The position numbers were made by a program, and so were the translations under genes. The notes beneath the pieces are model-generated. The model was not told the origin of the DNA, did not search any database, and was given only the letters and a program-made list of their open reading frames with translations. Source: Bacillota bacterium (lineage in GTDB: Bacteria > Bacillota_A > Clostridia > Lachnospirales > WQUN01). From it: a stretch of 26,337 nucleotides of DNA. The stretch spans positions 1-26,337 of the forward strand of contig WQTQ01000214.1 of the NCBI GenBank assembly GCA_009786175.1, in the 5' to 3' direction. The first letter of the stretch is position 1, and the number at the start of each line of letters is the position of its first letter. Positions 10,101 to 11,282 of the stretch are shown here, piece by piece.

Positions 10101-10246
10101 GAATTTACCAAAACTATTTCTATCCCGTCTTCCCGCAGAACACGGCACGCTTGAGTTCCGGCATAGTCGAACTCTGCGGCCTGGCCAATTACAATAGGCC
10201 CGGAGCCTATTACCATGGTTTTCCTTATGCTTTTATCGAGAGGCAT
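7112..10246 (-). CDS. carB: Carbamoyl-phosphate synthase large subunit
   Basis: CarB makes carbamoyl phosphate from bicarbonate, nitrogen and two ATP, feeding pyrimidine and arginine synthesis. The 1044-aa length is close to the usual 1060-1075. Both ATP-grasp halves are present. The first opens with [22 protein letters not shown] and carries [15 protein letters not shown] and [20 protein letters not shown]. The second opens with [21 protein letters not shown] and carries [13 protein letters not shown] and [20 protein letters not shown]. The C-terminal allosteric (MGS-like) domain, about residues 910-1044, is intact. The gene overlaps the carA end by 14 nt. I see no lesion in this subunit. 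Its partner lacks glutaminase residues, so the nitrogen donor is probably free ammonia, reaching the first ATP-grasp half directly or through the small subunit. The operon terminator follows at once. Confidence 0.96.
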   Translation of the reverse strand: [1044 protein letters not shown]

Positions 10247-11282
10247 TACAATTCACCGCCATTTCCACAAACTTATCAAACAAAAATTCTGTATCTTTCG
10301 GGCCTTCGCCCGGGCAAAACTGTACAGAAAATGAATTGCCGTAGTCCAGCCCTTCGCAAGTACCGTCGTTTACATTTACAAATGAAGCGTTTTCTGCCAA
10401 CACAGTGTACCCGTGGTTTTGTGCCGTAATGTAAACTCTGCCTGTACCCAGGTCTTTTACCGGCTGGTTCGCGCCCCTGTGGCCCAGCTTCATCGTTTTT
10501 GTTTTGTACCCGTTGGCCATTGCTAAAAGCAAGTGTCCCATGTCAATACCAAACATTGGGATGCCGCAGTTTTTAAGCTTGCGCAATGTTTCGATTATTG
10601 GCTTATTTGCAGGGTCTTCCGGGTCCCCGGGTCCGGAAGACAAAAGTATCCCATGAGGGTTTATGTCTAAAATATCTTTGACCGTAGTATGGTGTGGAAA
10701 AACCCATACGGCGCAATCTCTGGCAGTCAGCGCGTTTATGATGCTTTGCTTTACGCCAAAATCCAAAAGCGCGATACGGTATTTGCCTTCACCGTATACC
10801 TTAAGCTCTTTACAAGACACTGCGGCTATTGCACCTGTTACTTCATGGCTGCATGCTTCCTCCCTGTCTGTTTCGGTTGGCGGGTTAATGGTTATTTTAC
10901 CTTTAACTGTACCGTTCTCCCTGATTATTTGCGTTAACGCCCTTGTGTCTATCCCCTTTAACCCGGTTATGCCTTTTGACATAAAAAAAGTGTCAAGGGC
11001 TTCTTCACTACGGAAATTAGAAGGCTCCTGACACAAATATTTAACAATATAGGCTTTCGCGCTAACGGTACTGTTTTGTAAATCGGATGAAATAACACCA
11101 TAATTACCAATCAAAGGAAACGTTTGAAGGATGATTTGGCCAAAATAACTTGGGTCAGTAACGGTTTCTAAATAGCCAACCATACCGGTTGTAAATACAA
11201 TTTCACCGGCAACTTCTCCTGGTTTACCAAAAAATTCACCTTCAAAAACAGTTCCATTTTCAAGAATTAGGTAGGCGGTCAT
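10233..11282 (-). CDS. carA: Carbamoyl-phosphate synthase small subunit with lost glutaminase triad
   Basis: The 349-aa protein has a normal CarA N-terminal domain (TTGMVGYLETVTDPSY, KGIDTRALTQIIRENGT) and a class I glutamine-amidotransferase domain (about 168-345, with LLSSGPGDPEDP, GHRGANQPVKD and ITAQNHGY). The nucleophile elbow, normally FGICLGHQLLA, reads FGIDMGHLLLA, so the catalytic Cys is Asp247 and the Gln after His is Leu251. The segment normally reading SVQ(Y/F)HPEA...PGP reads SVQFCPGEGPKD, so about four residues including the triad His and Glu are missing. Frame and flanks are intact, so this is not simply a frameshifted gene. By analogy with ammonia-using CPS I, whose Cys is Ser, it is inferred to be a structural subunit of an ammonia-dependent synthetase. 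A ribosome binding site AAAGGGG precedes the ATG. Confidence 0.93.
   Translation of the reverse strand: MTAYLILENGTVFEGEFFGKPGEVAGEIVFTTGMVGYLETVTDPSYFGQIILQTFPLIGNYGVISSDLQNSTVSAKAYIVKYLCQEPSNFRSEEALDTFFMSKGITGLKGIDTRALTQIIRENGTVKGKITINPPTETDREEACSHEVTGAIAAVSCKELKVYGEGKYRIALLDFGVKQSIINALTARDCAVWVFPHHTTVKDILDINPHGILLSSGPGDPEDPANKPIIETLRKLKNCGIPMFGIDMGHLLLAMANGYKTKTMKLGHRGANQPVKDLGTGRVYITAQNHGYTVLAENASFVNVNDGTCEGLDYGNSFSVQFCPGEGPKDTEFLFDKFVEMAVNCNASR

What the first reader, a model, noticed from the sequence alone, without database searches (positions are those of the whole stretch)
10233..11282. CarA has lost all three residues of its glutaminase triad
In the sequence the nucleophile elbow reads FGIDMGHLLLA instead of FGICLGHQLLA (Cys to Asp247, Gln to Leu251). 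About 75 residues later the HPE segment is deleted (SVQFCPGEGPKD). The two lesions are independent, in frame, and leave the surrounding CarA motifs and the intact CarB untouched. By known mechanism a class I amidotransferase without Cys, His and Glu cannot hydrolyse glutamine. In animal CPS I, Cys to Ser accompanies ammonia use. Inference: this bacterium runs a two-subunit, ammonia-only carbamoyl-phosphate synthetase, plausible in an ammonia-rich protein-fermenting niche next to secreted proteases.
Basis: partly seen in the sequence, partly recalled or inferred. Interest (0 to 1): 0.78.

Follow-up and report, generated by a model that had tools for sequence, protein, structure and literature searches.

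The report
Ammonia-only carbamoyl-phosphate synthetase in gut bacteria
The small subunit of this bacterium's carbamoyl-phosphate synthetase has lost the residues that release ammonia from glutamine, relatives in one bacterial class have lost them many times over, and the partner subunit has changed at a matching spot, so these bacteria probably feed the enzyme free ammonia, as our own liver enzyme does.

Summary
Confirmed. CarA (minus strand, 10233-11282) has Asp247 for E. coli Cys269, Leu251 for Gln273, Cys323 for His353, Gly325 for Glu355, and two residues fewer just after. Not an error: 27 of 120 listed homologues (window included) lack at least one triad residue, and 25 of the 27, the window among them, form one clade. 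Not local: of 291 genomes of one class (Clostridia, I infer), 199 have CarA and 35 of these lack a full triad. Cys is replaced in 34, by Gly in 26; none of the 35 shows a second CarA. Two trees give 10 and 11 independent loser-keeper contrasts on well-supported branches. carB lies beside carA in 32 of 35, twice within a pyr gene cluster. CarB carries a matching mark: Asp258 or Gln262 is changed in 42 of 48 CarBs with broken CarA, 1 of 115 with intact; the window has Ser258, human ammonia-type CPS1 Asn. Best reading: a two-subunit, ammonia-only synthetase with CarA kept as structural partner, paralleling animal CPS I. No assay; the window's own genome is not held.

The parts
10233..11282 (-). 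carA, small (glutaminase) subunit of carbamoyl-phosphate synthetase, 349 aa, triad lost
10521..10553 (-). former nucleophile elbow FGIDMGHLLLA (residues 244-254): D247 (10542-10544, GAC) replaces Cys269, M248 replaces Leu270, L251 (10530-10532) replaces Gln273
10293..10328 (-). former His-Pro-Glu segment SVQFCPGEGPKD (residues 319-330): C323 (10314-10316) replaces His353, G325 (10308-10310) replaces Glu355, two residues missing before Gly-Pro
7112..10246 (-). carB, large (synthase) subunit, 1044 aa; its start overlaps the end of carA by 14 bases
9461..9475 (-). CarB residues 258-262 (Ser258 in place of near-invariant Asp; Gln262 kept), the site that co-varies with CarA triad loss
11408..16132 (-). 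context: S8 subtilase with PA domain
16210..20706 (-). context: second S8 subtilase with PA domain
23108..26035 (-). context: oligopeptide ABC transporter genes (two ATPases, one OppC-like permease)

Best explanation
CarAB here is a working carbamoyl-phosphate synthetase that takes free ammonia from the cell instead of ammonia cut from glutamine. The CarA glutaminase is dead: no nucleophile, no His-Glu pair, a glutamine-binding residue (Gln273) changed, and the segment next to the tunnel exit altered. CarA is kept because CarB needs it as a structural (perhaps allosteric) partner. CarB's two ATP-grasp halves still make carbamate and then carbamoyl phosphate, with ammonia entering CarB from solvent. 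Shown: the residues, their repeated loss, gene retention, faster evolution of the GATase domain and the matched CarB change. Inferred: lack of glutaminase activity, ammonia use in the cell, the structural role, and the reason (high ammonium from amino-acid fermentation, saving the ATP spent on glutamine).
For: (1) Triad loss in 27 of 120 listed homologues, window included, and in 35 of the 199 CarA-bearing genomes among 291 of one class. (2) Repeated: 21 state changes by parsimony on a 117-row tree and 13 on a 163-row tree; 10 and 11 independent contrasts on branches with SH-aLRT of at least 95 (quick trees, no bootstrap). (3) A single CarA match in 35 of 35 of these genomes. carB lies beside it in 32 of 35; two are cut by contig ends and one (G242) has no carB beside it. 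(4) In G300 and G335 the triad-less carAB lies next to pyrR, pyrB, pyrC and pyrF, in G300 also pyrK and pyrD. (5) GATase-domain distance relative to CarB is 2.91 among 11 losers and 1.48 among 13 keepers. (6) CarB Asp258: 114 of 115 with intact CarA, 14 of 48 with broken CarA; Gln262: 115 of 115 and 25 of 48. At least one is changed in 42 of 48 against 1 of 115. Tree-controlled pairs for 'either': 11 pairs, on average 8.2 the same way, 0 the other way, 2.8 without difference, median p 0.008. Human CPS1 has Asn at 258. (7) The predicted fold is kept: pLDDT 85.8, TM-score 0.90 to E. coli CarA. (8) Passages: Cys269 and His353 are essential for glutamine hydrolysis (PMC6245113); E. coli variants with the glutamine tunnel blocked are normally active with external ammonia, and human CPS1 has Ser for Cys (PMC4655335).
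Against: There is no assay of any member. The window's genome is not held, so an intact second carA there is not excluded; G158 carries an intact and a triad-less CarA, and G213 a triad-less one and a match to the intact pattern. PMC6245113 says E. coli CPS needs very high, probably physiologically irrelevant ammonia, and no change in ammonia affinity was shown here. Fifteen of the 25 window-clade rows keep Cys269, and of the 35 class-survey losers 5 keep His353 and 21 keep Glu355, so the loss of activity is inferred from different residues in different lines. Six of 48 losers keep both CarB 258 and 262. Tree-controlled tests of Asp258 and Gln262 taken singly give median p 0.03 and 0.06.
Confidence: 0.8

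Rival explanations
1. CarA is a decaying leftover: the operon is on the way out and carbamoyl phosphate comes from elsewhere (second CPS, uptake, arginine deiminase pathway).
For: GATase domain evolves faster; G158 has an intact copy too and G213 probably.
Against: Full-length CarA in the 25 clade rows; CarB of losers is 81-90% identical to the window's with the checked residues kept; 35 of 35 losers show no second CarA and 26 of the 32 losers tested have two or more OTC/ATC-type genes; two have the genes in a pyr cluster.
Confidence: 0.08
2. The glutaminase still works with other residues, or CarA now hydrolyses another amide.
For: Ser47, Gly241, Gly243, Asn311 and Gly313 (E. coli numbering; pocket residues from recall) are kept in the window; Gln273 is kept in 29 of 35 class-survey losers.
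Against: Cys is most often replaced by Gly (26 of 35), which cannot be a nucleophile, and His by 12 different residues; CarB's partner site changes as well.
Confidence: 0.05
3. CarA has become a glutamine or metabolite sensor that regulates CarB without hydrolysis.
For: Fold and part of the pocket are kept.
Against: Gln273 is lost in 23 of 25 window-clade rows, and I saw no conserved replacement residue that would mark a new ligand site (not searched systematically).
Confidence: 0.06
4. Assembly or sequencing artefact.
For: Single metagenome contig (one search lists one contig for P0001); own genome not held.
Against: P0002 has the same motifs on another contig; a 25-row clade and many further genomes share triad loss.
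Confidence: 0.01

Closest known systems
CPS II, bacterial glutamine-dependent CarAB (E. coli)
   Same: Two subunits, same domains, same gene order
   Different: Cys269, His353, Glu355 and Gln273 gone in CarA; CarB Asp258 changed
CPS I, animal ammonia-dependent CPS1 (human, frog)
   Same: Dead glutaminase kept as a domain; human CPS1 has Ser for Cys (PMC4655335 passages) and Asn at the CarB-258 position; bullfrog keeps the triad but lacks two glutamine-binding residues (PMC7657897 passages)
   Different: Two separate chains; closest solved structures by sequence are E. coli CPS, ahead of human CPS1; N-acetylglutamate control not tested; repeated in many bacterial lineages
CPS III to CPS I transition in fish and amphibians
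   Same: Graded loss; glutamine-binding residues altered with the triad still present in some frogs and in Alcolapia (PMC7657897 passages). In the window clade Gln273 is gone in 23 of 25 rows while 15 of 25 keep Cys
   Different: Bacterial and repeated; in the class survey it is the other way round, Cys lost in 34 of 35 with Gln273 kept in 29

Membership tests
CPS II (bacterial CarA, TIGR01368/NF009475) | Sequence and domain match | tested here: met
   Above curated cut-offs; PF00988 and PF00117
CPS II (bacterial CarA, TIGR01368/NF009475) | Cys-His-Glu glutaminase triad | tested here: not met
   D247, C323, G325
CPS II (bacterial CarA, TIGR01368/NF009475) | carB beside carA with conserved synthase residues | tested here: met
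   residue list from recall
CPS II (bacterial CarA, TIGR01368/NF009475) | Glutamine as nitrogen donor | not testable with these tools
   No assay; predicted absent
CPS I (ammonia-dependent, animal) | Loss of the catalytic Cys or of glutamine binding residues | tested here: met
   feature from passages
CPS I (ammonia-dependent, animal) | Single fused chain | tested here: not met
   Separate carA and carB genes
CPS I (ammonia-dependent, animal) | Essential activation by N-acetylglutamate | not tested
   Feature as stated in PMC6022934 (passage)

The most novel reading that the evidence does not exclude
Ammonia-only CPS has evolved over and over in gut Clostridia (about one in six sampled CarA-bearing genomes), with a predictable two-protein signature: the CarA nucleophile usually becomes Gly, and CarB loses Asp258 and/or Gln262, a site that couples glutaminase and synthase and that human CPS1 changed too (Asn258). 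In some genomes other class I amidotransferases lost their Cys as well (GuaA and a TrpG/PabA in G173, CTP synthase in G335 and G010), which would mean a wider shift from glutamine to free ammonia.
Probability: 0.55. Interest if true: 0.85.

Novelty: new variant of a known kind. Interest (0 to 1): 0.75.

Why it matters
A review states that glutamine is the preferred and physiologically relevant donor for E. [quoted passage not shown] If the reading holds, that is wrong for a sizeable share of the sampled class. Bacteria would then offer many replicate runs of the CPS III to CPS I change known from animals, and CarB Asp258/Gln262 becomes a testable site for glutaminase-synthase coupling. The NCBIfam model TIGR01368, which this CarA passes, is named 'glutamine-hydrolyzing', so name-based metabolic models would give these bacteria the wrong nitrogen source.

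Tried and rejected
Scans that led nowhere: genome contigs with P0001 alone and viral contigs gave no relative. 'Clostridia' for the class of G005 is my inference; that the genomes are gut bacteria is an inference too. A third homologue search listed 32 further proteins, of which one (P0251) lacks the triad.

Considered and weakened: a link between triad loss and absence of CTP synthase. PF06418 is absent in 27 of 35 losers and in 20 of 160 pattern-positive genomes (Fisher p 9e-14), but with tree-controlled pairs the link is not significant (median p 0.625). A first regex reading suggested that CTP synthase lost its HPE motif in four genomes; the alignment showed it is present, and only 2 of 10 lost Cys. 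The Fisher p-values for CarB 258/262 ignore relatedness too; the figures are the ones to trust.

Rows dropped before counts: of the 39 genomes with CarA but no intact pattern, two were cut by contig ends (G288, G294). In the CarB comparison 149 of 176 loci with CarA had a carB beside it, and loci with identical CarA ends were then merged; the 115 keepers include E. coli. CarA-CarB pairs for 24 P rows were made by equal contig length, an inference. L197 was left out of the tree as a fragment. Of the 160 pattern-positive genomes only 60 had a CarA read: 59 intact, one (G213) triad-less while the genome also matches the intact pattern; the other 100 were not read for Cys, so 35 is a lower bound.

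Full report
What is there. The window encodes, on the minus strand, carA (11282-10233, 349 aa) and carB (10246-7112, 1044 aa), overlapping by 14 bases. CarA passes NF009475 and TIGR01368, CarB passes NF003671 and TIGR01369. Against E. coli K-12 CarA (L146), D247 stands for Cys269, M248 for Leu270, L251 for Gln273, C323 for His353 and G325 for Glu355, with two residues missing (aligned to 357-358) before the Gly-Pro pair (codons). Ser47, Gly241, Gly243, His272, Asn311, His312 and Gly313 are kept; that several of these bind glutamine is recalled. The changed segment lies next to Gly359: PDB entry 1m6v is titled as the G359F small-subunit mutant, and the title of a paper on a tunnel blockage that stops glutamine but not ammonia use stands in the reference lists. 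That G359F is that blockage is recalled.

Is it real. Of the 120 homologues listed out of 8000 candidates, 27 lack at least one of Cys, His, Glu, the window's own protein included. With the motif columns left out, 25 of the 27, the window among them, form one group (SH-aLRT 92); in the first tree the group had 24 rows and P0101 stood outside. The loss is graded within it: Cys is gone in 10 of 25 rows, His in 24 of 25, Gln273 in 23 of 25. P0002, 84% identical on another contig, shares both window motifs. The other two are P0020 and P0030. Two Treponema CarAs (L003, L007) have lost only Gln273.

How common. The 80 named loci all keep Cys, His and Glu. Small families around three of these genomes showed triad-less CarA in G010, G163, G165, G158, G159, G161 and G162, each followed by a full carB (7 of 7). 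A census of 291 genomes of the class of G005 found CarA at E<=1e-25 in 199 and the CarA-specific intact HPE pattern in 160. All 39 genomes with CarA but no pattern were fetched and read: 35 lack at least one triad residue, two are intact, two are cut by contig ends. In the 35, residue 269 is Gly in 26, Glu in 4, Ser in 2, Asp in 1, Ala in 1 and Cys in 1; His353 is kept in 5 and Glu355 in 21; all three are gone in 11. Of 60 pattern-positive genomes read as a check, 59 were intact and one (G213) gave a triad-less copy. So 35 of 199 (18%) is a lower bound for this draw. None of the 35 has another CarA match. The genomes are mostly drafts of unknown completeness.

How often. On a 117-row CarA tree without the motif columns the state changes at least 21 times, with 10 independent loser-keeper contrasts on branches of at least 95% SH-aLRT. 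On a 163-row tree of CarA plus part of CarB the figures are 13 and 11. Both are quick trees without bootstrap. Regain of a full triad is unlikely, so I read the changes as losses.

Is it still used. carB lies beside the triad-less carA in 32 of 35 genomes; two contigs end too soon and one genome (G242) has another gene there. In G300 the cluster reads pyrR, a permease, pyrB, pyrC, pyrF, carA, carB, pyrK, pyrD; in G335 pyrR, pyrB, pyrC, pyrF, carA, carB (order). NCBIfam models above cut-off name PyrR, PyrB, PyrC (TIGR00857) and PyrF in both and PyrD in G300; PyrK of G300 matches the electron-transfer subunit models below their cut-offs. PF02729 (OTC/ATC) is found in 40 of 40 genomes tested, twice or more in 32; of the 32 losers among them 26 have two or more. 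Relative to CarB, the GATase domain distance is 2.91 among 11 losers and 1.48 among 13 keepers, the N-terminal domain 1.92 and 1.30. The predicted fold is normal (pLDDT 85.8; TM-score 0.90 to 1cs0 chain B). I read this as relaxed constraint on glutaminase work with the protein retained.

The CarB mark. Among 163 CarA-CarB pairs, CarB Asp258 is kept in 114 of 115 with an intact triad and in 14 of 48 without; Gln262 in 115 of 115 and 25 of 48. Of 158 sites at least 98.5% conserved in keepers, these two are the least conserved in losers (0.29 and 0.52; next 0.77; median 1.0). One or both are changed in 42 of 48 losers and in 1 of 115 keepers (L061, Asn258). With tree-controlled pairs, on average 8.2 of 11 go the same way and none the other (median p 0.008, range 0.004-0.016); singly, Asp258 has median p 0.03 and Gln262 0.06. 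The window has Ser258 (codon 9473-9475) and keeps Gln262. Human CPS1, the ammonia enzyme, has Asn there and keeps Gln (alignment). Arg265, one turn on, was part of a tunnel-wall mutant as I recall; a paper title on tunnel-wall perforation is in the list. I infer that this helix couples CarB to the glutaminase; its place in the structure was not looked up.

Is it only CPS. Fourteen of 14 HisH-like proteins read in loser genomes keep Cys and HPE; the eight tested pass the HisH model TIGR01855. Of 10 CTP synthases from loser genomes, 8 keep Cys; G335 has Ser and G010 Gly. GuaA keeps Cys in G182 and G285, but in G173 both GuaA and a TrpG/PabA-type protein have Gly (families). So the loss is mainly a CPS matter, with a few genomes going further.

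Mechanism and limits. Passages in PMC6245113 say Cys269 and His353 are essential for glutamine hydrolysis and that E. coli CPS uses ammonia only at very high, likely physiologically irrelevant levels. Passages in PMC4655335 say that variants with the glutamine tunnel blocked or perforated are normally active with external ammonia and propose an alternative ammonia entry. Passages in PMC7657897 describe the graded loss in frogs and Alcolapia. My reading is that CarB takes up free ammonia and CarA is a structural partner. Not shown: activity, ammonia affinity, the state of a second carA in the window's organism, and the ammonia level of its habitat. A search on ammonia in termite hindguts was made, but only its listing was seen.

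Is it in print. Nine searches of the held open-access library on CPS listed no paper on triad-less bacterial CarA by title or abstract start; several lists were capped (15 of 59, 15 of 28, 8 of 13, and one search was too broad to be useful). Two reviews, read in passages, treat bacterial CPS as glutamine-dependent. Subscription journals are mostly not held, so this is weak evidence of novelty.

Noticed in passing
P0141; L291:8295-12350; L135:884-4936: CarB is fused to a diaminopimelate epimerase (DapF, PF01678 twice). 99 of the 120 CarB hits are longer than 1200 aa and list PF01678; names seen include Treponema, Fibrobacteres, Defluviitaleaceae and Oscillospiraceae. The window's closest CarBs (P0121-P0136) are unfused.
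   Followed up: partly
L142-L145 (G157, G162, G160, G158): A further divergent CarA-like protein (GLGF elbow, YLPCSD-like in place of HPE) with no carB beside it in 4 of 4 stretches; the two tested have both CarA domains.
   Followed up: partly
35 triad-less genomes: CTP synthase (PF06418) is not found in 27 of 35 of them against 20 of 160 pattern-positive ones; the link is not significant once the tree is controlled. How these make CTP is open.
   Followed up: partly
L369 and L218 (G173), L250 (G335), L255 (G010): Other class I amidotransferases have also lost the catalytic Cys: GuaA and TrpG/PabA in G173 (Gly), CTP synthase in G335 (Ser) and G010 (Gly).
   Followed up: partly
L003, L007: Treponema CarAs with Cys, His and Glu in place but Gln273 changed to Leu, like the early step described for some frogs.
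   Followed up: no
window 2735-4812 (+): Radical SAM protein TIGR03916 next to a TIGR03915 protein, a putative DNA repair pair.
   Followed up: no
window 403-2355, 11408-20706, 23108-26035 (-): S41 peptidase, two large S8 subtilases with PA domain and oligopeptide transporter genes, pointing to a peptide-using organism.
   Followed up: no
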